DNA from: a virus
DNA: 42,175 nt
Virus record (IMG/VR): IMGVR_UViG_3300049846_001066
Span: 1 to 42,175 of that record
Direction: 5' to 3' (one strand)
Part shown: piece by piece, positions 8,405 through 32,647 of the stretch
Layout of the letters: every line of letters begins with the position of its first letter
How positions within the stretch are numbered: the stretch's first letter is position 1
The notes under the pieces: generated by a model
Database searches by the model: none
Told to the model about the DNA's origin: nothing
The model's input: the letters and a program-made list of their open reading frames with translations, nothing else
Made by a program: the position numbers and the translations under genes

Positions 8405-8410
8405 GTTAAG

Positions 8411-8434
8411 CCACTCTTTTAGAGTGGTTTTCTT
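8411..8434 (+). terminator. Rho-independent terminator after the holin gene
   Basis: A 7-bp perfect stem CCACTCT/AGAGTGG (8411-8417 and 8421-8427) with a TTT loop is followed by TTTTCTT. It lies seven bases after the holin stop codon. Confidence 0.85.
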
Positions 8435-8437
8435 ATG

Positions 8438-8606
8438 CCTTTTCTCAAGTCCTCGTAAATCGACTATATCCGCCTCGTGCCGATACAGCGTAGTGGCCAA
8501 ATTGAGGAAAGGGACAAGAGATGCCTTGCTTCGGGTTCGCCCAGCCTTGGTCACTTTGTTTCGGTGGTGTTCATTTGGCGAACCCCAAGGAGGGTAACTC
8601 TTTACC
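8438..8606 (+). ncRNA. Candidate structured RNA element upstream of a small HNH gene
   Basis: The 200 bases between the terminator and the HNH gene hold no good reading frame but many complementary segments. Helix 1 pairs 8438-8448 with 8502-8512 (11 bp with one G-U on the plus strand, which would be an A-C mismatch on the minus strand). Segment 8533-8541 pairs with 8577-8585 (9 bp). 8545-8550 pairs with 8585-8590, which would form a pseudoknot. 8496-8502 pairs with 8573-8579 as an alternative to the 9-bp helix. A small hairpin, 8593-8597/8602-8606, sits just before the ribosome binding site. It could be a small RNA, a leader switch for the HNH gene, or a mobile RNA element. No known family is recognised. 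Confidence 0.5.
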
Positions 8607-8627
8607 AATCCAAAGGGGGAATTAGAT

Positions 8628-8867
8628 ATGCGTAGACCAAAAAGTAGGCATGGGTTTTGTTGCGCTTGCATTCGTATCAGAGTGCTGGAAGCTCATCACT
8701 GCGTGCCACAGAGAGTAGAGAAGGCAACCACAACGTCAGAGATGCTTCATCTTTGCACTAAATGTCATCTTGAATTACATAGAGATTGGATAGACCCGCT
8801 TGGGAAACAGCCTCGGGAGGTATATATCGAAACAACCAGACAATTCCTCTGGGAAAAAAGGAATTAA
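8628..8867 (+). CDS. Small HNH endonuclease domain protein
   Basis: This 79-residue protein contains a compact HNH fold with CxxC (residues 12-15), the His pair EAHHCVP (about 21-27), then CxxCH and LH (about 44-51). The two Cys pairs bind structural zinc and the His residues form the metal site. A good ribosome binding site (GGGGGA) lies eight bases before ATG. Small HNH proteins can be homing nucleases or packaging nucleases. Here it follows a structured non-coding element and precedes a metallophosphoesterase. Confidence 0.8.
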   Translation: MRRPKSRHGFCCACIRIRVLEAHHCVPQRVEKATTTSEMLHLCTKCHLELHRDWIDPLGKQPREVYIETTRQFLWEKRN

Positions 8868-11303: not shown

Positions 11304-11388
11304 AAATCACTCTCCCACCAGCTAGAACCATAAAGATTAAGATACTAGCTAGGATTAAACCCATTAAGATTATTGGTATGTATGTCAT
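11302..11388 (-). CDS. 28-residue membrane mini-protein
   Basis: The minus-strand frame from ATG 11388 to TAA 11302 encodes a nearly all-hydrophobic peptide with a short GGRVI tail. Its start overlaps the stop of the preceding minus-strand gene in an ATGA arrangement, the same coupling used by neighbouring genes. It is the last gene of the leftward operon. It is probably a single-pass membrane peptide; the function is unknown. Confidence 0.55.
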   Translation of the reverse strand: MTYIPIILMGLILASILIFMVLAGGRVI

Positions 11389-11705
11389 CGGAACTCATTA
11401 GTTAATACTTTGTATCTGCGGTTTAAATTGGCTTTAAAGGCCTTCAATTGTCTGATACGCCTCTCGATAGCCTTTTGCTCCTTAAACTCGTCTGTGAGGG
11501 CTAATTTTCGCTTTCCAGCGGCGTCTGAACCCCACTTGTCTGCTAAGTCATCATACAAAACAGCCACTACTTGGTCAGCTTCCGCAAGGCGTTCCTCAAA
11601 GTCTCCTATAAATCCAGCCACCCAAAAGATAAGTTCATCCACCTCTCTGTAGTCAGCAAGATTAGTTGGGTCTTGCATCTTTTCTAATACTTGTTTAAAT
11701 GTCAT
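11385..11705 (-). CDS. Helical phage protein of unknown function
   Basis: The start at ATG 11705 is preferred because GGAGA lies just upstream; a start 36 bases earlier is possible. The 106-residue protein is charged and helical with coiled-coil character, and ends in a basic segment. No catalytic motif is seen. It overlaps the upstream small gene by 11 bases and the downstream mini-gene by ATGA, so it belongs to the leftward operon. Confidence 0.6.
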   Translation of the reverse strand: MTFKQVLEKMQDPTNLADYREVDELIFWVAGFIGDFEERLAEADQVVAVLYDDLADKWGSDAAGKRKLALTDEFKEQKAIERRIRQLKAFKANLNRRYKVLTNEFR

Positions 11706-11877
11706 CAAAAGTCTCCTCATAGAAGTTGTCTTTATCGACACCCATTAAACCACAATGACAATGTTCGTATCCATCCCACCGCTCCCAAGATTTTCGGTGG
11801 TAACCTCTTTTACACATAAAATCATCCCACCTCATGGAGATATTGTCTATCCACCATTCTTCAAATTTTTCATTCAT
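11695..11877 (-). CDS. 60-residue Trp-rich protein with a possible zinc knuckle
   Basis: This small protein has six Trp and a C-x-H-like cluster (CKRGYH near residue 22, HCHCG near 39), which may form one zinc site. It starts in an ATGA overlap with the nuclease gene and overlaps the next gene by 11 bases. The function is unknown. Such small leftward proteins in phages often target host factors, which is only a guess here. Confidence 0.55.
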   Translation of the reverse strand: MNEKFEEWWIDNISMRWDDFMCKRGYHRKSWERWDGYEHCHCGLMGVDKDNFYEETFDDI

Positions 11878-12269
11878 AAAAAATTTAACATTCTGCCTAG
11901 TTTTTTCTTCAAGGCGTTATATTCTTTTTGATCTACTAACTCAATTTTAATATCAGGGTAATGTTTTTCCATTCTGCGGAGTTTGAGTGTTCCTTGTCTA
12001 TAGCCCTTAATTTCAACCAGATAAAAAGTGTCGTCATTTCTAGTAACCTTGAAGTCTGGTAAGTACCCATTGCCTAGTGGGTGTCCGTCTTTAGCATAAA
12101 AATAGTATCTTGGTCTTGGCTCGTATTCCCAATTCTTAATTTCTCCTTGTTGTTTCAACCATTCCAAGTAGAAGGCGTAATTGATTTCCCATGTGGATCT
12201 AAAGGTTATTGGCTTACCCTCTTCAAACTCGTGTGTATGCCTTAGTATATTGTCCCACATTGCTACCAT
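11874..12269 (-). CDS. PD-(D/E)XK nuclease, endonuclease-I-like
   Basis: The 131-residue protein shows Glu28 in a helix (STWEINYAF), Pro-Asp at 71-72 (LPDF) and Glu86-x-Lys88 (VEIKG), the standard active-site layout of PD-(D/E)XK nucleases. The order resembles phage Holliday-junction or replication endonucleases such as T7 endonuclease I, and also DUF1064-type phage nucleases. A ribosome binding site (AAAGGA) supports ATG 12269. It probably processes branched phage DNA or host DNA. Confidence 0.75.
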   Translation of the reverse strand: MVAMWDNILRHTHEFEEGKPITFRSTWEINYAFYLEWLKQQGEIKNWEYEPRPRYYFYAKDGHPLGNGYLPDFKVTRNDDTFYLVEIKGYRQGTLKLRRMEKHYPDIKIELVDQKEYNALKKKLGRMLNFL

Positions 12270-12538
12270 AGACCTTTCCTTTCTGTCTTATTTTGTGTAC
12301 CCCACTTATCGAGAAAGTCTTTTACATTGTCTGTAATCTCTGCTTTACTGCTCCATTTATAGCCTATAATAGCGTTGTTTTTCATTATATGCTTCACTTC
12401 TGGTGACTCACTGGGTCTTAGGATTCTCTCTGCTGTCGCTGTTTTGTAACCCCATTGCTTGCATAGAAAGGCTAAATCATCCAGTGACATTGATTCGTGT
12501 TCTTTTAGATAGTTGTGTAGTTTTGTTTTTAATCCCAT
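12263..12538 (-). CDS. Small DNA-binding-like protein (winged-helix candidate)
   Basis: This 91-residue protein has an N-terminal region (about 5-60) with helix-turn-helix spacing (MSLDDLAFLCKQWGYKT) and a likely wing (IMKNNAIIGYKW), as in small winged-helix domains. The C-terminus is charged. It overlaps the nuclease gene by 7 bases. It may be a replication or regulatory accessory protein. The fold call is by eye and uncertain. Confidence 0.5.
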   Translation of the reverse strand: MGLKTKLHNYLKEHESMSLDDLAFLCKQWGYKTATAERILRPSESPEVKHIMKNNAIIGYKWSSKAEITDNVKDFLDKWGTQNKTERKGLW

Positions 12539-12547
12539 ATATTTGGA

Positions 12548-12967
12548 TTAGAATGGTATATCTGAGGTGTCAATTTGATAGTCCTCTGCTTGTAGTTCTT
12601 CTTTCTCGGTTTTGCTGTGTCCATAAACAACTATCTCGGCAAGCCTTTTGGCTGGAGTAGCTTGAAGCATAGCCTCTTGAATGCTCTTGCCAGACTGGAT
12701 ATATGCCTGTAAGAACAGAGATTGGCATTTACCTACGTTCTCTCTGTCATAATCCCTACCAGACGCAAAATTTGGCACGCTGTGGGGTGTTTCTAGGGAA
12801 AGTGGGGCTTGGTCTAGCTTAGGTCTTTGAGCAGGCTTAAATTGGCAAAATTCGCCATTTGGACCCTTTACCTCACAGGCATAGAAAGCCTTATAGGGTT
12901 GCCCTGTTTTTTTACTGACTCCTGCTGGCCTTACAGCCATTTCTGTGTTGTGAATTTCGCAAATCAT
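12548..12967 (-). CDS. Zinc-finger protein with an SSB-like C-terminal tip
   Basis: This 139-residue protein has an N-terminal Cys/His cluster (Cys3, His6, Cys31, Cys41) that resembles a topoisomerase-type zinc finger. A helical middle follows, and then an acidic tail ending DTSDIPF. That tip matches the C-terminal DDDIPF peptide by which bacterial SSB proteins recruit replication and repair enzymes. The OB fold of a true SSB is not evident, so this may be a divergent ssDNA-binding protein or a mimic of the SSB tail. Confidence 0.65.
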   Translation of the reverse strand: MICEIHNTEMAVRPAGVSKKTGQPYKAFYACEVKGPNGEFCQFKPAQRPKLDQAPLSLETPHSVPNFASGRDYDRENVGKCQSLFLQAYIQSGKSIQEAMLQATPAKRLAEIVVYGHSKTEKEELQAEDYQIDTSDIPF

Positions 12968-12984
12968 ATTATTAGTTATTTTAA

Positions 12985-13215
12985 TTATAGGATGCCTTCT
13001 CGCATCATTTCTTCAGTATGAGTCTGGTCGCTAGACCATTCATCGTGGGTATCTTCGTCGAAATCATCGCCAAACATACGGGCAATATTCTCGACTTGGT
13101 TCCTTCGTTCTACTGTACCATCAAATCCGTAGTAATCGTTGATCTGCTCAATCGTTAGATTTTGAGCTTCTTCGTGCCTATTATCGGCATCGAAAAGTGT
13201 ATCGTAGGTGTTCAT
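12985..13215 (-). CDS. Small acidic protein of unknown function
   Basis: This 76-residue protein is rich in Asp and Glu, with no Cys, membrane segment or known motif. It starts in an ATGA overlap with the upstream transglycosylase gene. Strong negative charge is common in phage proteins that mimic DNA or block host nucleic-acid-binding proteins, but nothing further supports this here. Confidence 0.5.
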   Translation of the reverse strand: MNTYDTLFDADNRHEEAQNLTIEQINDYYGFDGTVERRNQVENIARMFGDDFDEDTHDEWSSDQTHTEEMMREGIL

Positions 13216-13541
13216 TTTAAGTGCCTTTTGTATGCTAGATTCTTATACGCTGACCAAGGTTTGAAGCCTTGTGCCTTGTAAAGATTGTAAGCATAGTTAA
13301 TGTTAAATTCACAGCTTAATAATTCTTCAGGGTTGGGTCTACCCTCTAAATGTCTAATTTGGAATACTCCATAGCTTTTTCCATACTCTGTACCATTTTT
13401 CATAAAGGCTATGTGTCCATCACCTACCGCTTCACAGCGTAGGCCAGATTCTGCTTTGGCTATTGCTAAGGCTGTTTTACAATCCCAGTCTTTAGCACAA
13501 ATCAGTTTCTCAATAGTAGTTTTAGGTGTTACCTTGGCCAC
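13212..13541 (-). CDS. Lytic transglycosylase (SLT/lysozyme-like)
   Basis: The 109-residue protein has the SLT motif order: catalytic Glu31 in KAESGL, then GxxQ in KSYGVFQIRH (about 55-63), then NINYAYNLY (about 80-88). It would cleave glycan strands of peptidoglycan. There is no signal peptide. The start is GTG 13541 with a strong site AAGGAGG. The position in the leftward, presumably early operon, next to a membrane peptide, is unusual, because such enzymes normally sit with the virion or lysis genes. Confidence 0.75.
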   Translation of the reverse strand: MAKVTPKTTIEKLICAKDWDCKTALAIAKAESGLRCEAVGDGHIAFMKNGTEYGKSYGVFQIRHLEGRPNPEELLSCEFNINYAYNLYKAQGFKPWSAYKNLAYKRHLK

Positions 13542-13558
13542 TACGCCAGCCTCCTTGG

Positions 13559-13714
13559 TTATTTTAATTTTGGGTAGTCTGTGTGGTATGCGTTAGCGAA
13601 TTGAGTAATCTTATCGCTTAACATACTAGATGCCTGTAAGACAGAGAAGTATAAGCCGATAACTACAAGGGCGAATACTACTACTTTCTTATAGTGACTC
13701 TTTATGAAATTCAT
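13559..13714 (-). CDS. 51-residue membrane or exported peptide
   Basis: The frame from ATG 13714 (with AAAGGA upstream) to TAA 13559 encodes a basic N-terminus (KSHYKK), a hydrophobic segment of about 18 residues, and a polar tail. It looks like a type II membrane anchor or uncleaved signal. It is immediately upstream of the transglycosylase gene, whose ribosome binding site begins at its stop. It could provide membrane passage or anchoring for that enzyme; this is inferred from adjacency. Confidence 0.6.
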   Translation of the reverse strand: MNFIKSHYKKVVVFALVVIGLYFSVLQASSMLSDKITQFANAYHTDYPKLK

Positions 13715-13731
13715 AGATTCCTTTCGTTAAT

Positions 13732-13754
13732 GATTTAACTATTTGGGTTAAATC
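13732..13754. other. Inverted repeat between the HNH and membrane peptide genes
   Basis: GATTTAAC (13732-13739) and GTTAAATC (13747-13754) form a perfect 8-bp inverted repeat with a 7-base spacer. It touches the stop of the HNH gene. On the minus strand no T-run follows, so it is more likely an operator-like site or processing hairpin than a terminator. Confidence 0.4.
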
Positions 13755-14175
13755 AGATAATTTTTATTTTTTGGTTATCAATTTTCTTATGATAATCCTC
13801 ATGATGTGTTTTACATAACCATTTCACATCATAGGGTTTAGAGTAATCGTCATGATGAGCTTCGCCGATTTCCACACACATGTTCGCACCGCATATCTTT
13901 CTAGTAATGTCTCCTCGTATAACTGCTCTATTTAGGGCCTGTCGGGATAAATATTTTTGATGTTCTTCTGGCATCTGGATGAATCTATTTCTCTGATAAT
14001 CTAAGTTTCTTATCCTCCACTTACGATACGATTCTTTTTGTCTAACTTTCTTTTCTTCTATCGATAACTTGGTTCTCGGTTTCGTGCCTTGTTTTAATCT
14101 CCATTTCTTTAGGTATTCTCTATTATATTCCCTCAAACTTTCTTTGTATTTTTGGTATATCTCTCTTCTTGGCAT
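13753..14175 (-). CDS. HNH-family protein with basic N-terminal domain
   Basis: The 140-residue protein has a very basic helical first half (about 1-95) suited to DNA binding. Its C-terminal zinc/HNH-like core contains CGANMC, then EAHHDDY, and then CKTHHEDYH. Proteins of this form are common in phages and are usually annotated as HNH endonucleases. The ribosome binding site is weak. It begins only 26 bases after the structured RNA element at 14201-14449, an arrangement like that of the small HNH gene at 8628. Confidence 0.7.
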   Translation of the reverse strand: MPRREIYQKYKESLREYNREYLKKWRLKQGTKPRTKLSIEEKKVRQKESYRKWRIRNLDYQRNRFIQMPEEHQKYLSRQALNRAVIRGDITRKICGANMCVEIGEAHHDDYSKPYDVKWLCKTHHEDYHKKIDNQKIKII

Positions 14176-14200
14176 TAAATCATCTTAATATTGTTTTTGT

Positions 14201-14449
14201 AGGTCTGGTAGGTACTTCACTTAGGTTCAAGGTTTCCCTCTCTCGTTCGCTTTTCCCTACCTTCTGGTGACCTAACTGCCTAAGCAGTAAGTAGTCGGTA
14301 AGCCACAAAATTCAGAGATTAATTTGCCGAGTAACAAATTGCTTACCAACTATTTACCACAGACAGGGGTCGGGGCTTAGTGACGCTATCATTCCGTTAT
14401 AAACTACTCTGATGCTTTCCTAGGGTTAAGCCCCCAACTCTGTCTATGG
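14201..14449 (-). ncRNA. Candidate multi-helix structured RNA (unrecognised family)
   Basis: This gap has no reading frame and folds into consecutive helices. P1 pairs 14440-14449 with 14357-14366 (10 bp) and continues as 14427-14438 with 14369-14379 (11 bp, one bulge). P2 pairs 14341-14357 with 14287-14303 (17 positions, one mismatch, one G-U) and encloses hairpin 14321-14326/14335-14340. P3 is 14276-14279/14284-14287. P4 pairs 14269-14273 with 14201-14205 and 14256-14261 with 14207-14212. A GAAA tetraloop hairpin lies at 14230-14239. In both parts of P1 a U-G wobble on the minus strand would be a C-A mismatch on the plus strand, so a minus-strand RNA is favoured. It follows the mini-gene at 14444. 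An origin structure is an alternative. Confidence 0.6.
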
Positions 14450-14578
14450 CTTTTGGATTAATTGTTCAAGGTACAGATTCCAAGGTAGTCGGCTCTTCTT
14501 TTTTGCCTTTCTTAACTTTTCCCATGTACTGTCCTCTAATCGGATATTTCTTAGCTTTTTCTTTTCTTCAATCTTCAT
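14444..14578 (-). CDS. 44-residue ribbon-helix-helix-like mini-protein
   Basis: The frame from ATG 14578 to TAG 14444 encodes a basic N-terminus followed by a short beta strand (KLRNIRLEDS) and two predicted helices (TWEKLRKAKK and WNLYLEQLI). This is the pattern of CopG/Arc-type ribbon-helix-helix DNA-binding proteins. A near-consensus promoter places the start of transcription on the A of the ATG, so the mRNA would be leaderless. It may autoregulate the leftward operon. Its stop codon lies inside the first helix of the downstream structured element. Confidence 0.65.
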   Translation of the reverse strand: MKIEEKKKLRNIRLEDSTWEKLRKAKKKSRLPWNLYLEQLIQKP

Positions 14579-14613
14579 AGTTTTATTATATACTAAGTAT
14601 TTACTTTTGTCTA
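14578..14613 (-). promoter_or_regulatory. Near-consensus sigma70 promoter for the ribbon-helix-helix gene
   Basis: On the minus strand TAGACA (14608-14613) and TATAAT (14585-14590) are separated by 17 bases. Counting seven bases from the end of the -10 box puts transcription start at 14578, which is the first base of the ATG. Confidence 0.7.
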
Positions 14614-14644
14614 TACCTACCTGTGCATAAGTTAATTATCTCGC

Positions 14645-14950
14645 TTAATTATGAGATAAATTATTCCGATGATAAACTATATCTTTTGGAAAATAGTAAA
14701 TTGTCTGGCATTGTTGGCATCGGTAAAATTGTGAATAAAAATACTTTCTTTTTAATTTTTTTGCGGTAATTTTGGGAACTTTGACAATCAACTTGCCATT
14801 GCATTTGCGACAGATCTTATAATTATGGGTTTTTTTCGGTTTAACAGGAAAGGTAACGACATTACCACAGAATTTACAAGTAGCCTCGATAAAGGAATCT
14901 ACCTCATTAAATGACCAATTATTCTCAAAACATTTATTGCAATTATACAT
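14645..14950 (-). CDS. Zinc-ribbon protein with four CxxC pairs
   Basis: This 101-residue basic protein has four Cys pairs at residues 4/7, 25/28, 47/50 and 78/81, enough for two zinc ribbons. Lysine-rich linkers suggest nucleic-acid binding. It overlaps the replication initiator gene by 8 bases and so is produced with it. It might be a transcription or replication accessory protein; the family is not recognised. Confidence 0.65.
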   Translation of the reverse strand: MYNCNKCFENNWSFNEVDSFIEATCKFCGNVVTFPVKPKKTHNYKICRKCNGKLIVKVPKITAKKLKRKYFYSQFYRCQQCQTIYYFPKDIVYHRNNLSHN

Positions 14951-15422
14951 TTTTCTTTCCCCACCTTTCTTTCAATTTTTTATATGCTTCTAAATTTTCA
15001 ATATTCTTTCTTTTGTTTTCTTTCTTTTCTTTTGTGTGTAAACCCCGCTTAACTACTTTAGTTAACCCCGCTTTACTACTTTTTGACGAATTTTTAACTA
15101 GTAAAGTGGTATTAACTACCCATGTATTCCAATATTTATTGATTTTATAGGCATTTTCGTGCCTACCTGGTAAAGACCGCTTTACTAGTATATTTCTATA
15201 AACTAAATTTTTTATTGTTTTTACAATGGTGGGTCTTGAAAGGCTTGTCCCTAATTCGAACTGTGTAAGGCTTACAAAGTCCTCAGTTTTTTGCCATCCG
15301 TAGGTTTTACGAATGACAAAAAATATTACTTGATACTCCGAACCTAGTAAACACGCCTTAACTAGTTGTTCAAGTAATTCATTAACAATTTTCGTATGTC
15401 CATTTTCAATTTGTAATTTCAT
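14943..15422 (-). CDS. O-type replication initiator
   Basis: The N-terminal domain (about residues 3-85) matches the phage replication protein O DNA-binding region, with motifs QIENGHTKI, RKTYGW and LSRPTIVKTIKNL typical of its winged-helix fold. The C-terminus is charged and would contact a helicase or loader. The start ATG 15422 (159 residues) fits the family better than a TTG at 15479 that would add 19 residues inside a hairpin region. No helicase loader or polymerase gene is present, so host replication proteins must be recruited. Origin iterons were not clearly found. Confidence 0.8.
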   Translation of the reverse strand: MKLQIENGHTKIVNELLEQLVKACLLGSEYQVIFFVIRKTYGWQKTEDFVSLTQFELGTSLSRPTIVKTIKNLVYRNILVKRSLPGRHENAYKINKYWNTWVVNTTLLVKNSSKSSKAGLTKVVKRGLHTKEKKENKRKNIENLEAYKKLKERWGKKNV

Positions 15423-15432
15423 ATAATATAAA

Positions 15433-15484
15433 ACCCCGTCCAACCTTGCGAGTAGAAACGGGGTATATATTTGTTGCAAGGTTG
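15433..15484 (-). promoter_or_regulatory. Interlocking hairpins in the leader of the replication gene (attenuator-like)
   Basis: Two inverted repeats interleave. CAACCTTGC (15441-15449) pairs with 15476-15484 (9 bp), and ACCCCGT (15433-15439) pairs with 15458-15464 (7 bp). Both cannot form as simple hairpins at once. In the minus-strand transcript the 9-bp arm comes first. The second hairpin is followed by TTTAT and ends ten bases before the start codon, so it could terminate transcription or block translation. Together they could act as antiterminator and terminator, or form a pseudoknot. Confidence 0.6.
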
Positions 15485-15507
15485 TTTTGTTTATTTGTTC
15501 ATTAAAC

Positions 15508-15543
15508 TAACCTAATTTTATACTAGATAAAAATTTTTGTCAA
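15508..15543 (-). promoter_or_regulatory. Promoter for the leftward replication operon
   Basis: Minus-strand TTGACA (15538-15543) is separated by 17 bases from TAAAAT (15515-15520). The predicted start near 15508 gives an 86-base leader that contains the interlocking hairpins. Confidence 0.8.
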
Positions 15544-15563
15544 ATCGGAGGGGTTGTGGATAT

Positions 15564-15573
15564 CTCATTTGAG
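15564..15573. promoter_or_regulatory. Short palindrome overlapping the rightward -35 box (operator candidate)
   Basis: CTCA-TT-TGAG is a perfect inverted repeat within a longer imperfect one. It overlaps the -35 element of the rightward promoter, so a bound dimer could repress that promoter. No second copy was found. Confidence 0.35.
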
Positions 15574-15604
15574 GTATTTTCTAAATAGGTTTATAATGAA
15601 AGTA
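15569..15604 (+). promoter_or_regulatory. Promoter for the rightward glycan operon
   Basis: TTGAGG (15569-15574) and TATAAT (15592-15597) are separated by 17 bases. The predicted start near 15604 gives a leader of about 12 bases without a Shine-Dalgarno sequence before ATG 15616. Confidence 0.7.
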
Positions 15605-15615
15605 ACAAACACCAC

Positions 15616-16659
15616 ATGAGCAAGAAAGATCAAGTACAGATTAATCCACAGGAAGCTACAAGGTTACTAAATAACTTTTATATTCAAAATGGTCTGAACG
15701 CAGACTACAATCGGCTGGTATTAGATTCCCAGCTTTTAAATTATTTCTTAGAGCATACAGGTGATGTAAAGAAAAAAGCTAAGGTTGCCTTTTGTAGCGT
15801 AGTCCTAAATCCTCCTTACTGGGAATATACCAAAGATCTAATCGATGGTGCAAGGCAGTTTTTCTTGCCAGGACATGATGTAGATTTCTTTATCTGGTCT
15901 GACATTCCTAAAGAAAAGTCTGACATGGAGAAATTAAGGGACAAATTCAAAGCACAAGACCCAAATTGGGATGACAAGCTCTTCATGGAGCAGTTAACAA
16001 CGCTGAGTGAGTTGGTACATACTAGCACTACAGTTACGGAAACAGAGGGTGTGTCTTGGCCTTACCCAACCCTAATGCGTTATCATCTTTACTTGCAACA
16101 AGAAGAAAAGCTTAAAGAATACGATTATGTATTCCACTGTGATGTAGATATGAAGTTTGTCAACGTGGTTGGAGATGAAATACTTGGTAATGGTTTGACT
16201 GCAGCCCAGCACCCTATGTACGCACTTAGAAAAGAATACTGGCCACCTTACGAGCCTAACGAAAAGAGCGAAGCCTTTATTAAGCGACCAGGTAAGGTTA
16301 TTAACGATAATGGCAAGCCTCGCTTTATGCCACTTTATTATGCAGGAGGCTTTCAGGGCGGTAAATCTGCTGACTGGATCAAGGCTATGCGTACAATGAA
16401 AAAGATGATTGATACAGATATGACTAATAACTACATTCCTATTTGGAACGAGGAGTCTATTTGGAATAAGTATTTATCAGAGAATACACCAGACGTTGTA
16501 CTTACCCCTAGTTATATTTACCCAGATAGCTTGATTGCAGAGTATTACGAGAAGATTTGGGGTTGTTCATATCAGCCAAGATTAGTAACCCTAACTAAGA
16601 AATTCACAACATCAGCAGAGGGTGGTCAGGCAGTTCAAGAAATGCTTAAAAATATATGA
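15616..16659 (+). CDS. Glycosyltransferase family 6 (ABO-type)
   Basis: This 347-residue protein carries the GT6 landmarks: SWPYPTLMRYH (about 147-157), the metal-binding DVD (176-178) in FHCDVDMKF, YYAGGFQGG for acceptor and donor recognition, then PIWNEESIWNKYL and VLTPSYIYPD. GT6 enzymes transfer Gal or GalNAc from UDP-sugars in alpha-1,3 linkage. An intact DxD is like the vertebrate enzymes, whereas many bacterial members are described with NxN. An extra N-terminal ~50 residues are not part of the family core. It is the first gene of the rightward unit and would act in the cytoplasm or at the membrane. Confidence 0.85.
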   Translation: MSKKDQVQINPQEATRLLNNFYIQNGLNADYNRLVLDSQLLNYFLEHTGDVKKKAKVAFCSVVLNPPYWEYTKDLIDGARQFFLPGHDVDFFIWSDIPKEKSDMEKLRDKFKAQDPNWDDKLFMEQLTTLSELVHTSTTVTETEGVSWPYPTLMRYHLYLQQEEKLKEYDYVFHCDVDMKFVNVVGDEILGNGLTAAQHPMYALRKEYWPPYEPNEKSEAFIKRPGKVINDNGKPRFMPLYYAGGFQGGKSADWIKAMRTMKKMIDTDMTNNYIPIWNEESIWNKYLSENTPDVVLTPSYIYPDSLIAEYYEKIWGCSYQPRLVTLTKKFTTSAEGGQAVQEMLKNI

Positions 16660-16937
16660 TAAATCGTAAACAAATCCCAATCTATTCAGGAGTCGTCAAG
16701 TATTTCCCCAACGCTTTAGCAGAAATAGCAAGGGTATCTTTAGCAGGGAATAAACAACACCATGACGGAACACCTCTTCATTGGGATAAATCTAAAAGTA
16801 GCGATGAACCAGATGCACTTATGAGGCATCTAACAGACCACGCAAAGGGTATTGAGTTTGACGATGACGGAATGAGGCACTTATCAAAAGTAGCATGGAG
16901 AGCCTTAGCTCTCTTAGAAAGGGAATTAACCAAATGA
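16656..16937 (+). CDS. dATP/dGTP diphosphohydrolase-like protein (DUF5664)
   Basis: This 93-residue protein has the conserved core GNKQHHDGTPLHW, DKSKSSDEPDALMRHL and HLSKVAWRALALLERE of the DUF5664 family, which is often annotated as phage dATP/dGTP diphosphohydrolase. The helical His/Asp/Glu pattern fits an all-alpha NTP pyrophosphohydrolase. It would alter nucleotide pools. It is wedged in the glycan operon by ATGA overlaps on both sides. No PurZ or modified-base polymerase is present. Confidence 0.75.
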   Translation: MINRKQIPIYSGVVKYFPNALAEIARVSLAGNKQHHDGTPLHWDKSKSSDEPDALMRHLTDHAKGIEFDDDGMRHLSKVAWRALALLERELTK

Positions 16938-17596
16938 TGTTTTCCATAATTATACCCTCGTACAACCAGCAAGAGTATCTTTGTGATGCTATTGATTCTG
17001 CACTAGCACAACCTGTTAGTGAGGTAATCGTAATTGATGATGGCTCAACTGATAACTCTCTTGCCATAGCTCGTGGCTACGAGAAACATGGGGTCAAAGT
17101 CATTAGCCAAGTTAACAAGGGATTAGCATCTGCTCGCAATACAGGCATTATGAACGCACAGGGGTCGTGGATTTTACCTTTAGACGCAGATGATATATTG
17201 CTAGACGAGTGCGTGGAGAAAATCATAGAAACTATCAGTAGATACAGCCCAGACATAGTCAGTGCATCTTTTCGTGAGTTTGGAGTTAGAAACACTAATA
17301 TTGTGTTAATGGATAACCCAACGATAGAAGATTTTGTCACTGGTAACAGGGTTGGTTATTGTTCAGCAATTAAGAAGTCTATACTGCAAGCAGTGGGTGG
17401 CTATTCACCCAGAATGGATAAGGGTTATGAGGATTATCATTTGTGGTTTAACCTTTTATCTCGTGGTTACAGTATAAAGACTATTCCTGAAATGTTATGG
17501 CTATATCGGACTAAGGAAGAAAGCATGATAACAGAATCGCAAAAGCATCACAACGAGTTAATGGCTCAAATTAATAAGGACTTTAAATTATGGTAG
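16934..17596 (+). CDS. Glycosyltransferase family 2
   Basis: Started at ATG 16934 (ATGA overlap), this 220-residue GT-A protein has the N-terminal strand FSIIIPSYNQ, VIDDGS in the nucleotide site, and the metal-binding DADD (LPLDADDILL). It continues to the acceptor-side GYEDYHLW motif typical of bacterial GT2 polysaccharide transferases. It uses an NDP-sugar; the sugar cannot be told. Its stop overlaps the next transferase gene by 7 bases. Confidence 0.85.
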   Translation: MMFSIIIPSYNQQEYLCDAIDSALAQPVSEVIVIDDGSTDNSLAIARGYEKHGVKVISQVNKGLASARNTGIMNAQGSWILPLDADDILLDECVEKIIETISRYSPDIVSASFREFGVRNTNIVLMDNPTIEDFVTGNRVGYCSAIKKSILQAVGGYSPRMDKGYEDYHLWFNLLSRGYSIKTIPEMLWLYRTKEESMITESQKHHNELMAQINKDFKLW

Positions 17597-18174
17597 AAAT
17601 AGAAAAATTATGGGGTAGGCTTTCTAACAATATGTTTATTTTTGCTGCCCATTATGCAAGATGTGCCGAGAATGGCGACCATTTCTTTGTACAAGATGAA
17701 AAGTATTTTGAAAAGTACAAGTATCAAATTAGACAACTGTTTAGCGCGGGAATTGTACCCAACTCAATTGAAAAGACTGCTATACATGTTCGATTAACAG
17801 ACTATGTTGGCAATTCCTTCTATGTAGATCTTGGACACCATAAGCATTCAGACATGAGTGACAATTACTATGTTAAGGCTATGGCAGAGTTCCCAGCGGA
17901 TACAAAGTTTTTAATTTTTTCTGATGATGTTGAGAAAGCAAAAACTATGCCAATGTTTCAAGGTGATAGATTTGAATTTTCAGAGGGGAAGACAGCAGTA
18001 GAGGATATGAACACAATGGCATCGTGTACAGGTATCATTATTGCAAACAGTTCATTTTCATGGTGGGCTGCATATTTATCACAAGCTAGTAAAATTATTG
18101 CTCCTAAGCAGTGGTTCTCAAACCCTGATGACGACCAATATATAGGGATACCAAATACATGGTTGCGTTTGTAA
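17590..18174 (+). CDS. GT11-like alpha-1,2-fucosyltransferase
   Basis: This 194-residue protein has the GT11 landmarks: an N-terminal GRLSNNMFIFAAHYAR loop (like GxLGNQMFQYA), the HxRxxD motif as HVRLTDYV (about 67-74), FSDDVEKAK, and the C-terminal ANSSFSWWAAYLS with IAPKQWF. GT11 enzymes transfer fucose from GDP-fucose in alpha-1,2 linkage. At 194 residues it is shorter than most members (about 270-300), so the central region is reduced. It overlaps the dehydratase gene by 16 bases. Confidence 0.8.
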   Translation: MVEIEKLWGRLSNNMFIFAAHYARCAENGDHFFVQDEKYFEKYKYQIRQLFSAGIVPNSIEKTAIHVRLTDYVGNSFYVDLGHHKHSDMSDNYYVKAMAEFPADTKFLIFSDDVEKAKTMPMFQGDRFEFSEGKTAVEDMNTMASCTGIIIANSSFSWWAAYLSQASKIIAPKQWFSNPDDDQYIGIPNTWLRL

Positions 18175-19106
18175 CAGGCATTAATGGCCAAACAGGCTCT
18201 TATTTAGCAGAGATCCTTCTTGAGAATGGGTATGAGGTACACGGGATGATAAGGCGTGGTTCTACCCATAAGACAGAACGAATTGACCATATTTTAGATA
18301 AGATTACTTTCCATATTGGAGACTTAGAGGATGTTAACTCATTAACAAAGATATTACAGGAGGTTCAACCAGACGAAATTTACAACTTCGCTGCAATGTC
18401 ACAAGTGAGGATTAGTTATGATATTCCAAGTTATACAGGTAAGGTTACTGGTATTGGTTTTGCAAATCTTATTGAGGCTGTGCGCTTGGTATGCTCGCAA
18501 GCCAAGGTCTATCAAGCCTCTTCCTCGGAGATGTTTGGTAAGGTATTGGAAGTTCCTCAACGTGAGACCACGCCTTTCTACCCTCGCAGTCCGTATGGTT
18601 GTGCCAAGGCATATGCGTTTTATCTTGGACGAGCTTATAGAGAAGGATATGGTCTCAAGGTCTACAATGGTATCCTTTTTAACCACGAGTCTCCAAGACG
18701 AGGTGAGGAGTTCTTATCCAAGAAGGTCTGTAAAGCGGTTGCAAGAATTAAGAAAGGCCTCCAAGACAAATTAGAACTAGGAAACCTAGAGGCAAAAAGG
18801 GATATTGGTTATGCAAAGGATTACGCTTACTGGATATGGAGAATAATGCAGGGAGAGCCAGATGACTATGTTATTTCAACAGGTGAAACTCACTCAATGG
18901 AAGAGTTTGTCGAGGAAGCGTTTGGTCATGCAGGTTTAAACTGGAAGGATTATGTGGTTATCAACGAGGATTTGAAACGCCCAGCAGAAGTTGATTACTT
19001 ACAGGGGGACTCAACAAAAGCTAAGAAGATGCTCGGTTACGAAGTAAAGACTTCTTTTAAGGAACTTGTAAAAATAATGGTAGATTATGAGCTTGAAAAC
19101 ACCTAA
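18159..19106 (+). CDS. gmd: GDP-mannose 4,6-dehydratase
   Basis: This 315-residue short-chain dehydrogenase begins with TGxxGxxG (residues 6-13). It has the Gmd signatures RRGS (about 32-35), FAAMSQV (77-83), SSSEMFG (121-127), and catalytic YxxxK (Tyr146, Lys150), followed by FNHESPRRG. It makes GDP-4-keto-6-deoxymannose, the branch point to GDP-fucose, GDP-rhamnose, GDP-perosamine and others. No GDP-fucose synthase is clearly present; the DegT aminotransferase two genes on suggests an amino sugar. It is slightly shorter than usual. Confidence 0.88.
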   Translation: MVAFVTGINGQTGSYLAEILLENGYEVHGMIRRGSTHKTERIDHILDKITFHIGDLEDVNSLTKILQEVQPDEIYNFAAMSQVRISYDIPSYTGKVTGIGFANLIEAVRLVCSQAKVYQASSSEMFGKVLEVPQRETTPFYPRSPYGCAKAYAFYLGRAYREGYGLKVYNGILFNHESPRRGEEFLSKKVCKAVARIKKGLQDKLELGNLEAKRDIGYAKDYAYWIWRIMQGEPDDYVISTGETHSMEEFVEEAFGHAGLNWKDYVVINEDLKRPAEVDYLQGDSTKAKKMLGYEVKTSFKELVKIMVDYELENT

Positions 19107-19710
19107 AATATCAATCGCTTGCCCTGTCTATGATATGCCTAATGGCGATTTCTTCATGAAAAGACTAATTAAAAGCCTTGAACAGCAGACTTTTACAGAT
19201 TTTGAATTAGTTATTACGCAGGAAGGCAAAATGGCAGAAAACACTAACGCGGCTATAAAGAAAAGTAGGGGTGAGTTGATTAAAATCCTCTATATGGACG
19301 ACTATTTAGCACACCCTGATGCTCTTAAGAATATTGTTGATAACTTTGCAGGAAGGTGGCTTGTTACAGGTTGTAATCATGACAATGGTATAGAGATTTT
19401 TAACCCCCATATACCTTATTGGAATCCAGAAATGGTCAAGGGTGCTAATACTATTGGATCACCCTCTGTACTGACAATAAAAAATGAAGATCCTCTATTG
19501 TTTGATGAGACGATGACATGGCTGCTTGATTGCCATTATTATAACCAAATGTATCAGAAATATGGAGTACCAATTTTTCTTAATAGTATAGATGTAACGA
19601 TTGGACTTGGACCCCATCAGATGACTAACATTTTGACTGAAGAGGAAAAAGAGAGGGAACGTAATTATTTAGCAAATATATATGACAAAAATTTCTTTAA
19701 CACAAAATAA
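19087..19710 (+). CDS. Glycosyltransferase family 2-like protein
   Basis: This 207-residue protein has a GT2-like N-terminus (ISIACPVYDMPNGDFF), a region NTNAAIKKSRGELI, and an acidic metal site LYMDDYLAH, all in the GT-A order. The C-terminal half is less typical and ends in LGPHQMTN. It overlaps the dehydratase gene by 20 bases, and a homing endonuclease gene overlaps its last 29 bases. The sugar specificity is unknown. Confidence 0.7.
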   Translation: MSLKTPKISIACPVYDMPNGDFFMKRLIKSLEQQTFTDFELVITQEGKMAENTNAAIKKSRGELIKILYMDDYLAHPDALKNIVDNFAGRWLVTGCNHDNGIEIFNPHIPYWNPEMVKGANTIGSPSVLTIKNEDPLLFDETMTWLLDCHYYNQMYQKYGVPIFLNSIDVTIGLGPHQMTNILTEEEKERERNYLANIYDKNFFNTK

Positions 19711-20137
19711 GCACGCATTGATTGATGACTCTGATGTAGATATGGTCGGCAAGTATAAATGGAACTATACCTCGCACGGATATGCTGAAACTCGGATAGA
19801 AGGCAAGTTGGTTCGTATGCATCGTTTGATTATGTCCGCCCCTAGAGGCGTATTGGTCGATCATATTAATATGAATGGTATAGACAATCGAAAATCAAAT
19901 CTTAGGCTGTGTACTAAATCGGAAAACATGAGAAATAGAAATAAGACCAAATTGAACACATCAGGGTATAAAGGGGTCGTTTGGGATAAAGTTAACAAAA
20001 AATGGAGGTCACAGATAAGAATGGACGGTAAAAATTATAATATCGGACGATTTCTCTTGAAAAGAGATGCTGTCATGGCCTATAACAATAAAGCTAAGGA
20101 ATTTTTTGGACAATTTGCAAGATTAAATAATATATAA
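19682..20137 (+). CDS. HNH homing endonuclease with AP2 DNA-binding domain
   Basis: The 151-residue protein has an HNH core (MHRLIM, VDHINMNGIDNRKSNLR) at about 39-82. A C-terminal AP2-type domain (SGYKGVVWDKVNKKWRS, then the ARLN end) spans about 97-150. This pairing is typical of freestanding mobile endonucleases in phages. Its frame begins inside the end of the GT2 gene and stops five bases before the aminotransferase, so it looks like an insertion that keeps the operon intact. Confidence 0.85.
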   Translation: MTKISLTQNKHALIDDSDVDMVGKYKWNYTSHGYAETRIEGKLVRMHRLIMSAPRGVLVDHINMNGIDNRKSNLRLCTKSENMRNRNKTKLNTSGYKGVVWDKVNKKWRSQIRMDGKNYNIGRFLLKRDAVMAYNNKAKEFFGQFARLNNI

Positions 20138-20141
20138 AAAT

Positions 20142-21254
20142 ATGCGAAGAGTAAATTTACTCCAACCAACTTTTGACGACCAGACTCTAGAGGAGTTAAT
20201 GGCTGTGATGAAGTCTGGCTGGGTGGGCTTTGGCTCAAAGACAATTGAGTTTGAAGAAAAGTTTGCAGAATATGTGGGTGCTAAGTATGCAATAGCAACT
20301 AACAGTGCCACTTCTGCACTAGATTTGTGTTTAAAGGTTTACGATATTAATGGGGGTGAGTTAATCACACCTGCTTTTACTTTCGTGTCCGATGCAATTG
20401 TCGGAGAGTGGAATGGCATGGGTGTAACTTTTGCAGATATTAATCCTCGAACATTTTGTATTGACCCAGAGAGCCTTGTGTTAAGCAAGGACACAAAGGC
20501 CATTATAGCAGTTGATTGTCATGGACGACTGGCTGATATTGATGGTATCCGCGCTAAATGCAATGAGGCTGGCATTAAACCCTTGATAATTGAAGATGCG
20601 GCTCATGCTATGTACACACCAGGGGTAGGTAAGGGTGATATTGTTGTTTGGAGCTTCCAAGCGGTAAAAAGCCTCCCTATTTTTGATGGTGGAATGATTA
20701 CTACTAATGACGAAGAAGTTTACAAAAAGTTAAGACCTATGACATGGCTGGGTGTGGAGAAGCTAACCTATGAGCGAGTACAGGGCGGTAAATATACATG
20801 GGATTATGATGTCAAAATCGGTAATGGTATTAAGGCTTACATGACAGATGTGCAGGCGGTCTTGGGTATTGGACAGATGAGGAGACTAGAAGAAACGAAT
20901 GCACGCAGAAGAGAGATACAGGATAAATACAACAAGGCGTTCTCTGGCTATGATTGGTTTGTAGCCCCTGAATATAGCCATACAGTACAGTACTATACGC
21001 CAGAATGGGCGGGTGATAGAGACGCCTTATCACAATTTTTAGGGGAGAATGGTATCCATACCTCTGTACACTTTAAACCAATATCAGAGTTTACTTATTG
21101 GAAAAAGGCCAAGAAGAGACCACTGCCACAGCAGGACAGTGTGTGGTTAAGATTATTAAGCCTTCCTGTACATAATGCCCTTACAGATGAGGAGCAGGAC
21201 TATGTGATAGAGAAGGTTAAGGAGTTCTACAATGAAGATTCTAGTAACAGGTAG
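20142..21254 (+). CDS. DegT/DnrJ/EryC1 sugar aminotransferase
   Basis: This 370-residue PLP enzyme has the family marks: NSATSALDL (54-62), EDAAHA with Asp152 for the pyridine nitrogen, and SFQAVK with Lys176 as the Schiff-base lysine. The presence of Lys argues for transamination rather than a ColD-type dehydration, which has His. With GDP-mannose 4,6-dehydratase in the same operon, GDP-perosamine or a related 4-amino sugar is a plausible product. Length is normal for the family. It overlaps the epimerase gene by 23 bases. Confidence 0.87.
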   Translation: MRRVNLLQPTFDDQTLEELMAVMKSGWVGFGSKTIEFEEKFAEYVGAKYAIATNSATSALDLCLKVYDINGGELITPAFTFVSDAIVGEWNGMGVTFADINPRTFCIDPESLVLSKDTKAIIAVDCHGRLADIDGIRAKCNEAGIKPLIIEDAAHAMYTPGVGKGDIVVWSFQAVKSLPIFDGGMITTNDEEVYKKLRPMTWLGVEKLTYERVQGGKYTWDYDVKIGNGIKAYMTDVQAVLGIGQMRRLEETNARRREIQDKYNKAFSGYDWFVAPEYSHTVQYYTPEWAGDRDALSQFLGENGIHTSVHFKPISEFTYWKKAKKRPLPQQDSVWLRLLSLPVHNALTDEEQDYVIEKVKEFYNEDSSNR

Positions 21255-21942
21255 TAGGGGCTATATAGGCACTAAACTGTGCGAACAATTAGAAGCAGAG
21301 GGTCATGAGGTTATTGGTTGTGATATTAAATCTCGTACTGCTATTGAGGACACTTATTACGAGGGGATAGAGCTTATCTATCACTTAGCTGCACAAACAG
21401 ATGTCCAATACTCTAGAACTCATGCGCTGGAGGATGCAGAGTATAACATCATCTTAACTCTTAAATTACTTGATAAGTACCCTAATGTTCGGATTATCTA
21501 TCCTGCTAGTGCAGCGTCTTTGACAATTAACTCGCCTTATGGTCTTTCCAAGAGGGTAGCACAAGAGTATATCCAGCTACTTAGAAATGATTATGTTATC
21601 TGTACCTTAGGAAATATTTGGGGTAAGGGTGGACATGGAGCTATTGACCACTTTATGCAGGCAGATGTTATTAGGGTTAATGGCGATGGCTCACAGACTC
21701 GTTCGATAATCCATGTTGATGACGTTGTAAGAGGTTTAATACTGGCAAAGGATTGGGAAACAGGTGTGTACTCATTAGGTGGTAACGATATGGCGTTAAA
21801 AGAGATTGCAGAAAAGATAAGTGCAGATCGTGGTGTTCCAGTTGAGTACGACCTTGATTATGACCCTAAAATTAATGGTGAGGTTTATGCGGCTGTAATA
21901 CCGAATACTACTCCTAACTGGCAAGCGGAGATAAAACTTTGA
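21232..21942 (+). CDS. NAD-dependent sugar epimerase/dehydratase
   Basis: This 236-residue extended SDR protein has the GxxGxxG site (LVTGSRGYIG, 4-13), HLAAQTDV, and YxxxK in SPYGLSK. Members normally have about 300 residues, so the C-terminal substrate part is short. The substrate is not clear. It could reduce or epimerise the product of the dehydratase, or act on a UDP-sugar. Its stop overlaps the TTG start of the next gene. Confidence 0.78.
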   Translation: MKILVTGSRGYIGTKLCEQLEAEGHEVIGCDIKSRTAIEDTYYEGIELIYHLAAQTDVQYSRTHALEDAEYNIILTLKLLDKYPNVRIIYPASAASLTINSPYGLSKRVAQEYIQLLRNDYVICTLGNIWGKGGHGAIDHFMQADVIRVNGDGSQTRSIIHVDDVVRGLILAKDWETGVYSLGGNDMALKEIAEKISADRGVPVEYDLDYDPKINGEVYAAVIPNTTPNWQAEIKL

Positions 21943-22532
21943 AATTACCACAGGTAACATTAATAGCTGTATCAGGTATTGGATACGATTCAGAGGGACA
22001 CAAGAAAGCATTTGAAAAGTCTTGTAGGAATATAGATTTTGGTGCGGTTAAGCATATAGAGTTAGGTGAGATTAAGGATATTGATACTTGGAATAAGGCG
22101 GTTATATATGAGTTACCCAAATATGTGGAAACAGATTTTGCATTATTAATACACCCAGATGGTTATGTAGTGAATGCAGACTGCTGGGATGATAATTGGT
22201 TAAATTATGATTACATCGGAAGCCCATGGCCAGAGCCACAAGATACGTTCTCCTATCGTGACGTCAAAGGTGAAATCCAACGTGTCGGTAACAGCGTATC
22301 CCTTAGGAGTAAAAGACTTCTCGATGTGGCGAACAAACGTAACTTGGAGTGGAAACCCTTTTATGGTTACTACAACGAGGACGGATTCATCTGCGTCAAC
22401 TATCGCCATATATACGAAGAAGAGGGCTGTAGATTCGCTCCACTGGAGGAGGCGGTAAGGTTTGGTAAAGAGTGGGATATACCAGAGAATAGAAATATTA
22501 ATAAGACGTTTGTCTTTCATTCAACACAATGA
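21939..22532 (+). CDS. DUF5672 glycosyltransferase-associated protein
   Basis: This 197-residue protein matches the DUF5672 pattern: FALLIHPDGYV, WLNYDYIGSPWP, VGNSVSLRSKRLLD and EDGFICVNYR in order. The family is found in polysaccharide loci and is thought to contain GT-A-like transferases, but the reaction is not established. The start is TTG 21939, overlapping the previous stop. It is coupled by ATGA to a GT11-like gene. Confidence 0.75.
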   Translation: MKLPQVTLIAVSGIGYDSEGHKKAFEKSCRNIDFGAVKHIELGEIKDIDTWNKAVIYELPKYVETDFALLIHPDGYVVNADCWDDNWLNYDYIGSPWPEPQDTFSYRDVKGEIQRVGNSVSLRSKRLLDVANKRNLEWKPFYGYYNEDGFICVNYRHIYEEEGCRFAPLEEAVRFGKEWDIPENRNINKTFVFHSTQ

Positions 22533-23299
22533 TATACGGGATTATTCATAAGGGGTCAGGGTTGGGAAACCAACTCCACAGATATGTGGCAACAAGGGTA
22601 CTTGCCCTTGATAATGGGTATGATTTTGGTTTTGTAGCACCAGGGTTATTTAAGGGTATATCTTTTATGAAACCACAGATGGGTACTGTCTATGAGGAGT
22701 ATGCAGATATCCCTTATACCATTGAAGAGCCAGCAGGTAAGGTTGTTGCTAAGAGTGATATACCCTTATGGGTAGAGGGAACAGACTATTATAACCCAGA
22801 GTTTAATTTTATTAGTGATAATACAATAATTGATGGCGAATTTCAGGACGAAAGATACTTTGGACACAGACTGCCAGAGATAAGAGAATGGCTTAAAACA
22901 GAGTATATGGATATGCCAGACGACTTATGTGTTATAGGCTTTAGAGGTGGTGAGTTCGCCATTTACCCAGATTTATTCTTAACACCTAGTTACTGGCTTG
23001 AGGCTATCTCAATTATGAAAGGTATAAACCCTAAGATGAGATTTGAAGTCCATACAGACGACCCAGGCATGGCTAAAAGGTTTTTCCCAGAATATAAAAT
23101 CATTCATGATATAAGCATTAACTGGAGATCAATAAGATATGCGAAATATAGTATTATCGCTAATTCTAGTTTCTATATACTCCCTTCACTACTTAACGAC
23201 AAGGCAGAGAAGATAATAGCACCTAGATATTGGGCGAGAAGAAACACTGCGGTATGGTCGATGCCACAGAATTATTACAAGAAATTCCATTACATTTAA
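22529..23299 (+). CDS. GT11-like (fucosyltransferase-type) glycosyltransferase
   Basis: This 256-residue protein shows GSGLGNQLHRYVATR near the N-terminus, IGFRGGEF in place of the HxRxxD region, HTDDPGMAK, and the C-terminal ANSSFYILPSLL with IAPRYWA. These are GT11/GT-B fucosyltransferase marks, although the Arg motif is altered (FRGGE). It is the second GT11-like gene here and differs strongly from that at 17590. The donor is probably GDP-linked; the exact sugar is unknown. Confidence 0.7.
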   Translation: MIYGIIHKGSGLGNQLHRYVATRVLALDNGYDFGFVAPGLFKGISFMKPQMGTVYEEYADIPYTIEEPAGKVVAKSDIPLWVEGTDYYNPEFNFISDNTIIDGEFQDERYFGHRLPEIREWLKTEYMDMPDDLCVIGFRGGEFAIYPDLFLTPSYWLEAISIMKGINPKMRFEVHTDDPGMAKRFFPEYKIIHDISINWRSIRYAKYSIIANSSFYILPSLLNDKAEKIIAPRYWARRNTAVWSMPQNYYKKFHYI

Positions 23300-23886
23300 T
23301 GAAGTATGTTCTTAGTCGTTATAATCACAATGTTGCTTGGGTTTCTGGCTACTCTGATGATGTTGTTATTTATGATAGAAGCGAACAGCCATTACCGAAT
23401 ACCATTGTGGTTGCTAATGTCGGCAGTGACATTTACGATAAGTTTACCTATATTATTGACAATTACGATAATTTGCCAGAGGTTGCTCTGTATTCTAAAG
23501 CAAATTTGTTTGATTATATAAAGCCGAGAGAGTTTGAATTAATAAAAGATAACAAGTCGTTTACCCCTTTGCTTACTTTGGAGCATAAAGTATATGAACC
23601 TGTTTGTTGGTACGAGAATGGACTTTACTGCGAGTTGAATAACTATTGGTATTTACACTATCACCCAGCGCGAAAGGCGGATGAATTAGTAAAGCTACTA
23701 GGTATGGATAAGAGGGAGTATAACAAGTTTGCACCAGGGAGTAATTACATAGTCCCACGTGAAAACATACTGAAGCATCCTAAATCGTATTATGAAAAAT
23801 TAAGAAGCTATCTTGATTGGTCTGTTTATCCAGGGGAGGCACAGATATTAGAAAGGAATTTATATTATATATGGTCTATGACGTAG
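23299..23886 (+). CDS. DUF3431-like glycan-associated protein
   Basis: The start at ATG 23299, overlapping the previous stop (TAATG), gives 195 residues. Motifs such as VVANVGSDIYDKFTYIIDNYDNL, FAPGSNYIVPRENIL and YPGEAQILERNLYYIW resemble DUF3431 proteins found beside glycosyltransferases. It probably has a glycosyltransferase-type fold, but no DxD site is evident. It overlaps the GT17-like gene by 16 bases. Confidence 0.6.
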   Translation: MKYVLSRYNHNVAWVSGYSDDVVIYDRSEQPLPNTIVVANVGSDIYDKFTYIIDNYDNLPEVALYSKANLFDYIKPREFELIKDNKSFTPLLTLEHKVYEPVCWYENGLYCELNNYWYLHYHPARKADELVKLLGMDKREYNKFAPGSNYIVPRENILKHPKSYYEKLRSYLDWSVYPGEAQILERNLYYIWSMT

Positions 23887-24639: not shown

Positions 24640-24867
24640 ATGAGAATACTTAATAATCGCATCCTTCTAAAGGCGGTTGAGCCAGAGAAGAGCGATATTA
24701 TAAAACCTTACGAGGTTAAGCACTATGAGGTTGCAGGAGTGGGTCCAAAGGTCGAAGAGGTAAAAGTGGGTGATAAGGTACTGTATCAGCAGGGAGCTAA
24801 GGTGAATATATTAGGTGAGGATTATGTCCTTATCGAACCAGATGATTTAATTTGCGTACTAGAATGA
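24640..24867 (+). CDS. groES: Co-chaperonin GroES (short form)
   Basis: This 75-residue protein has the GroES order: N-terminal LNNRILLKAVEP, VAGVGP, then VKVGDKVLYQQGA and a C-terminal YVLIEPDDLICVLE. Cellular GroES has about 95 residues. Here the mobile loop that contacts GroEL is cut to a short EKSDIIKPYE stretch and the roof is reduced. A strong ribosome binding site (AAAGGAG) lies before ATG, and the stop overlaps the groEL start (ATGA). Confidence 0.88.
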   Translation: MRILNNRILLKAVEPEKSDIIKPYEVKHYEVAGVGPKVEEVKVGDKVLYQQGAKVNILGEDYVLIEPDDLICVLE

Positions 24868-32225: not shown

Positions 32226-32647
32226 TGAGTTTACAGTATGCCCCAAAATTACCAATAGATGCAGGTGGAAATTCAATGCAAGAGTTACCCTCTGCAGTAA
32301 AGGCTAAAGCTACCTACGGTTCTGAAAATGCCTCTACCTCATCTGTTATTAGTGTCACCCATGATACAACAGGTATTGAGGTGGCAGCAGTTACAACAGC
32401 AGCAGTATTGCGTTGGATAGCTCGGTCAGATACAGCAGCCAGCGTGATTAGTGCAGCAGGTACAGCTAACTTTGACCATGTTGTACCAGTCGGACAAGTT
32501 AGGCGCTTTGCTATCCCAATTGAAGTTCAAGGATCTAGTCCAGCCTCCGTTCAAGGTGCTAATCGTGCAAATGGTTTGTACCAACGTGTAGCAATTAAGT
32601 CAGTAGGTGTAGGCTCGGTCTTACTTACTGAATATGGACTATCCTAA
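32225..32647 (+). CDS. Structural protein, beta-rich (head module)
   Basis: The 140-residue protein is rich in Ala, Val, Ser and Thr with alternating hydrophobic residues, as in small head decoration or tail proteins. It lies between the portal and scaffold/capsid genes. It starts in a TAATG overlap and ends in another. No enzymatic motif is present. Confidence 0.6.
   Translation: MSLQYAPKLPIDAGGNSMQELPSAVKAKATYGSENASTSSVISVTHDTTGIEVAAVTTAAVLRWIARSDTAASVISAAGTANFDHVVPVGQVRRFAIPIEVQGSSPASVQGANRANGLYQRVAIKSVGVGSVLLTEYGLS

What the first reader, a model, noticed from the sequence alone, without database searches (positions are those of the whole stretch)
14201..14449. Large multi-helix structured RNA candidate on the minus strand
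The 270-base non-coding gap contains four consecutive long-range helices, including a 21-bp and a 17-position stem, plus a GAAA-capped hairpin. In the first stem two pairs are U-G on the minus strand but would be C-A on the plus strand, while only one pair favours the plus strand. The gap is also transcribed leftward from a near-consensus promoter at 14578-14613. I recognise no known RNA family. It may act in replication control, as a regulator, or as an RNA partner of the adjacent HNH protein.
Basis: partly seen in the sequence, partly recalled or inferred. Interest (0 to 1): 0.78.

Follow-up and report, generated by a model that had tools for sequence, protein, structure and literature searches.

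The report
Orphan folded leader before phage endonuclease
In an uncultivated phage, a non-coding stretch of about 250 bases just before a small DNA-cutting (HNH) gene folds much better than chance would give, most likely as a folded part of that gene's messenger RNA; no relative of it was found anywhere we could search, so neither the fold nor a function is proven.

Summary
The observation largely holds. The 14176-14443 gap on the minus strand contains four successive helices. P1 and P2 are among the five strongest wide inverted repeats of the 42-kb window, and the strand folds at z = -4.4 (plus strand -1.25). The near-consensus leftward promoter is there. One argument is wrong: wobble pairs do not favour the minus strand (1:1 in P1, 1:1 in P2), and P1 and P2 alone fold equally well on both strands. 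The minus-strand bias comes from P4 and A-rich loops. Nothing in Rfam matches. Neither sequence nor covariance search found a homologue in this phage's family, in 80 loci with a related HNH gene, in pattern-fetched loci or in about 200 bacterial genomes, so compensatory change cannot be tested. HNH relatives usually lack any such RNA (68 of 80 have under 100 nt of upstream non-coding DNA), so an obligate RNA partner of the HNH protein is unlikely. The window's only other recognised HNH gene (8628-8867) also follows a 223-nt gap with two large adjacent inverted repeats. Best reading: a cis-acting structured leader or intercistronic mRNA element of a free-standing homing-endonuclease-like gene, a kind known from T4-like phages. 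The sequence is an orphan; the function is inferred.

The parts
14198..14449 (-). Structured non-coding element (candidate RNA), four helices in a row
   Evidence: z -4.40 for 14190-14460 minus; z -3.85 for 14198-14449 minus against -2.22 plus; single copy in the record
14357..14449 (-). P1: arms 14427-14449 and 14357-14379, 20 of 23 positions paired, 47-nt apical part with a small inner helix; its first bases overlap the stop codon of the 44-aa ORF
   Evidence: rank 3 inverted repeat of the window
14287..14357 (-). P2: arms 14341-14357 and 14287-14303, 16 of 17 positions paired, 37-nt apical part with an inner helix
   Evidence: rank 5 inverted repeat
14275..14288 (-). P3: 5-bp hairpin with loop UUAG
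14200..14274 (-). P4: two stacked 6-bp helices 14269-14274/14200-14205 and 14256-14261/14207-14212 around a purine-rich internal loop holding a 4-bp GAAA-capped hairpin
   Evidence: prefers minus strand, z -2.46 against +0.57
14585..14613 (-). Promoter TAGACA-17-TATAAT; a start about 7 bases after the -10 box would fall on the ATG of the 44-aa ORF (14578). A palindrome ATACTnAGTAT lies in the spacer
   Evidence: 11 of 12 matches; its counterpart at 15515-15543 is part of direct repeat D2; start site inferred
14444..14578 (-). 44-aa ORF with the look of a small ribbon-helix-helix protein; no Shine-Dalgarno, so leaderless if real
   Evidence: no family match; RBS test
13753..14175 (-). HNH endonuclease-like protein, 140 aa
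   Evidence: phrog_2340 'endonuclease' 2.2e-18; HHxDYxKP..WLC..HH motif shared with relatives; weak ribosome site
8435..8627 (+). Possible second element of the same layout, upstream of the second HNH gene: inverted repeats 8431-8448/8502-8519 and 8516-8541/8577-8602; whole-stretch folding only weakly above chance
8628..8867 (+). Second small HNH endonuclease-like protein, 79 aa
   Evidence: phrog_7370 HNH endonuclease 3e-5

Best explanation
The element is a cis-acting structured stretch of the leftward early mRNA. Transcription from 14585-14613 would run through the 44-aa ORF, then the element, then the HNH gene; no intrinsic terminator was found on this strand between them. The folded stretch separates the two genes and probably sets how much HNH protein is made, by ending ribosome read-through from the 44-aa ORF, by offering long helices for processing or protection by ribonucleases such as RNase III, and by leaving the weak HNH ribosome site dependent on its own initiation. 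Shown: the fold potential, the position, the promoter match, the absence of a terminator match, the weak ribosome site. Inferred: transcription, folding in the cell, and the effect on HNH expression.
For: Minus strand folds at z -4.4 against -1.25 for plus with A-rich loops; P1 and P2 rank among the five best wide inverted repeats of the window. Promoter on the same strand just upstream and no minus-strand terminator in 13500-15700. The HNH start lies only about 25 nt after P4, with a weak ribosome site (-3.5 kcal/mol). The other recognised HNH gene of this phage also has a >200-nt gap with two adjacent large inverted repeats directly upstream on its own strand; by the ORF list only three internal gaps of the window reach 200 nt. 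Structured leaders that control homing endonucleases are established in T4-like phages (I-TevI, II, III, segB, mobE), and seg43(25) of Aeromonas phage 25 has a very stable hairpin just before a ribosome site it does not cover (PMC2988022; PMC3014915).
Against: No homologue, hence no covariation and no proof of selection on the fold. The element does not clearly bury the HNH start (mean unpaired probability 0.51 with it, 0.63 without), so the best-known mechanism is not met. Most HNH relatives do without such a leader. The second element (8435-8627) folds only weakly above chance (z -1.6). Coding parts of this genome reach similar z-scores.
Confidence: 0.42

Rival explanations
1. A separate small regulatory RNA that acts in trans, cut out of or ending within the transcript from 14585-14613.
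For: Compact run of four helices with its own upstream promoter; no Rfam family.
Against: No terminator match between the element and the HNH gene; no conservation in any relative; the 44-aa ORF occupies the first 130 nt of the transcript.
Confidence: 0.17
2. Remnant or divergent form of a mobile intron or ribozyme that once carried the HNH gene.
For: Phage HNH genes live both free-standing and in group I introns (PMC2988022). A relative's locus (L306) has an HNH ORF with a strongly folded 286-nt stretch before it (z -5.3) and more helix-rich non-coding DNA after it.
Against: No Rfam intron hit even at E = 10; the ORFs on either side cannot be joined into one gene, since the 51-aa ORF downstream has an in-frame stop just before its start; the 38-nt gap after the HNH gene has no room for the 3' half of a group I core.
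Confidence: 0.13
3. The inverted repeats act as DNA (cruciform, protein site, homing-endonuclease target or recombination site), not RNA.
For: Wobble pairs are symmetric between strands, and P1 and P2 score the same on both strands as RNA and also fold as single-stranded DNA.
Against: Wide loops (37-47 nt) are unusual for DNA operators; P4 and the A-rich loops favour the minus strand; single copy, no matching ends seen.
Confidence: 0.15
4. Guide or scaffold RNA of the HNH protein, as in RNA-guided nucleases.
For: Adjacency, same strand, similar size to the 262-nt IsrB scaffold (PMC9581776).
Against: Protein is 140 aa with no RuvC, PLMP or other matching domain; 68 of 80 HNH relatives have no space for such an RNA upstream; no HEARO match.
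Confidence: 0.03
5. Chance: a GC-richer intergenic stretch with inverted repeats and no selected RNA.
For: Orphan sequence; other parts of this genome, including coding parts, reach equal z-scores.
Against: Two of the five best inverted repeats of 42 kb lie side by side here, 0.47 such repeats being expected in all; z -4.4 with 0 of 200 shuffles.
Confidence: 0.1

Closest known systems
Structured leaders of phage homing endonucleases (I-TevI, segB, Aeh1 mobE; seg43(25) of Aeromonas phage 25) (PMC2988022, PMC3014915)
   Same: Folded RNA directly before a free-standing phage endonuclease gene, transcribed with it; seg43(25) also has a very stable fold that does not cover the ribosome site
   Different: Four helices over about 250 nt instead of one hairpin; no clear burial of the start; no late promoter within the fold; unrelated sequence
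HK022 put RNA (PMC9378689)
   Same: Cis-acting folded RNA in an early phage transcript downstream of a promoter
   Different: put is about 70 nt with two stem-loops and acts on RNA polymerase; this element is about 250 nt with four helices; no antitermination evidence
HEARO / omega RNA of IsrB and IscB (PMC9581776)
   Same: Similar length; lies before a gene whose protein carries an HNH domain
   Different: No RuvC or PLMP domain, no Rfam match, HNH protein is of the phage homing-endonuclease type
GOLLD and ROOL phage RNAs (PMC12286853)
   Same: Large structured phage RNAs of unknown role
   Different: Much larger, near tRNA genes, widely conserved, in Rfam; no match here
RNase III sites between early genes of T7-like phages (own knowledge)
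   Same: Intercistronic long hairpins in an early polycistronic mRNA
   Different: One hairpin per site; processing not tested here

Membership tests
Structured leader of a phage homing endonuclease gene | Folded RNA immediately upstream of the endonuclease gene on its coding strand | tested here: met
Structured leader of a phage homing endonuclease gene | Fold buries the ribosome site or start codon | tested here: inconclusive
   Mean unpaired probability around the start 0.51 with the element, 0.63 without
Structured leader of a phage homing endonuclease gene | Effect on translation or mRNA level of the endonuclease | not testable with these tools
   Needs expression data
HEARO / omega RNA | Match to the covariance model | tested here: not met
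   No match at gathering score or up to E = 10
HEARO / omega RNA | Associated protein has RuvC-like (and PLMP) domain | tested here: not met
   140-aa protein, no Pfam hit, PHROG endonuclease family only
Group I or group II intron | Conserved catalytic core found by Rfam models | tested here: not met
Group I or group II intron | Interrupts a gene whose halves join in frame | tested here: not met
   44-aa ORF ends with its own stop; downstream 51-aa ORF has its own start and an in-frame stop just before it
HK022 put-type antiterminator RNA | About 70 nt, two stem-loops, just downstream of an early promoter | tested here: not met
   Size and helix number differ (PMC9378689)
HK022 put-type antiterminator RNA | Suppresses termination in cis | not testable with these tools
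   Needs transcription assay
GOLLD / ROOL | Match to the Rfam model | tested here: not met

The most novel reading that the evidence does not exclude
The two HNH genes of this phage each carry an upstream multi-helix RNA of one undescribed type, with two adjacent wide-loop hairpins in a row, that travels with or controls mobile HNH endonucleases in a family of uncultivated phages.
Probability: 0.15. Interest if true: 0.55.

Novelty: new member of a known kind. Interest (0 to 1): 0.33.

Why it matters
If real, it adds a larger and more complex example to the set of RNA leaders through which phages keep mobile endonuclease genes in check, and gives a sequence-defined target in a family of phages with no cultured member found here. 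It would not by itself open a new class: without homologues the claim rests on one sequence.

Tried and rejected
Rfam at gathering score and at E up to 10: nothing. DNA similarity in GenBank phages and plasmids: only 20-30 nt chance pieces; the Geobacillus phage piece lies at the start of a coding gene. A covariance model from the single sequence found nothing beyond itself in 718 kb of the phage's family, 913 kb and 279 kb of pattern-fetched loci, 80 HNH loci, 46 whole viral records or 198 bacterial genomes of one phylum; such a model has low power for distant relatives, and the host is unknown. Close relatives of the HNH, zinc-ribbon and O-like proteins: none or very distant. TerL found 42 related viral contigs but no close relative of the leftward early genes. 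A conserved gap upstream of TerL in relatives turned out to be coding. Structured gaps in relatives G002, G005 and G011 are not alike in sequence to this one. A pseudoknot between the P3 loop and P4 (8 pairs, 14279-14286 with 14218-14225) is possible, but helices of that size are common by chance here.

Full report
What the window is. The window is a whole 42,175-base virus record. It carries phage structural, terminase, GroES/GroEL and glycosyltransferase-type genes, and its terminase has 42 relatives among uncultivated viral contigs but no match in 50,697 GenBank phage records at E = 1e-20 and none confirmed in genome contigs. The leftward early block 11385-15479 runs O-like replication protein (Pfam Phage_rep_O 1.6e-18), zinc-ribbon-like protein, 44-aa ORF, gap, HNH protein, and further small genes. 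Relatives share the right-hand and structural genes but have different early blocks.

Noticed in passing
8405-8627 (+) and 8628-8867 (+): Two adjacent large inverted repeats, including the strongest of the window, in a 223-nt gap directly before a second small HNH gene, behind a holin-like gene and a terminator-like hairpin.
   Followed up: partly
15038-15368 within the O-like gene 14943-15479: Four copies of a 22-nt repeat (consensus about GTAAAC-CCGCTTTACTACTTT) plus inverted copies: a probable lambda-type replication origin inside the replication gene.
   Followed up: partly
33370-33475 (+) and 32520-32650 (+): Strongly folded stretches inside or at the end of structural-gene ORFs (z -6.8 and -4.4), stronger than the element under study; function unknown.
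   Followed up: no
24640-26423 (+): A GroES-like gene followed by a full-length GroEL gene in a 42-kb phage; relatives share it in part.
   Followed up: no
13715-13752 (-): Perfect 9-bp hairpin UGAUUUAAC/GUUAAAUCA between the HNH gene and the next small gene.
   Followed up: no
14589-14599: Palindrome ATACTnAGTAT in the spacer of the leftward promoter: a possible operator, perhaps for the 44-aa ribbon-helix-helix-like protein.
   Followed up: no
L065:12965-13205 (record G011): A related phage has a 240-nt multi-branched RNA-like stretch closed by a 9-bp helix ACGCUCCGC/GCGGAGCGU behind a terminator, upstream of its terminase genes; no Rfam or GenBank phage match, but only moderate z (-2.4 on its own).
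   Followed up: partly
L058:361-747 (record G002), minus strand: Strongly folded 387-nt stretch (z -4.4 to -5.8) before another HNH ORF; much of it is a terminator and promoter-region inverted repeats.
   Followed up: partly
L306:220-2597: An N4-type capsid-like gene seems split between 702 and 1019, and an HNH gene at 1863-2474 sits inside folded non-coding DNA (z -5.3 before it); possibly introns that Rfam does not recognise at gathering score.
   Followed up: no
15616-23886 (+): A long run of glycosyltransferase- and aminotransferase-type genes (DegT family at 20142-21254) in a phage genome.
   Followed up: no
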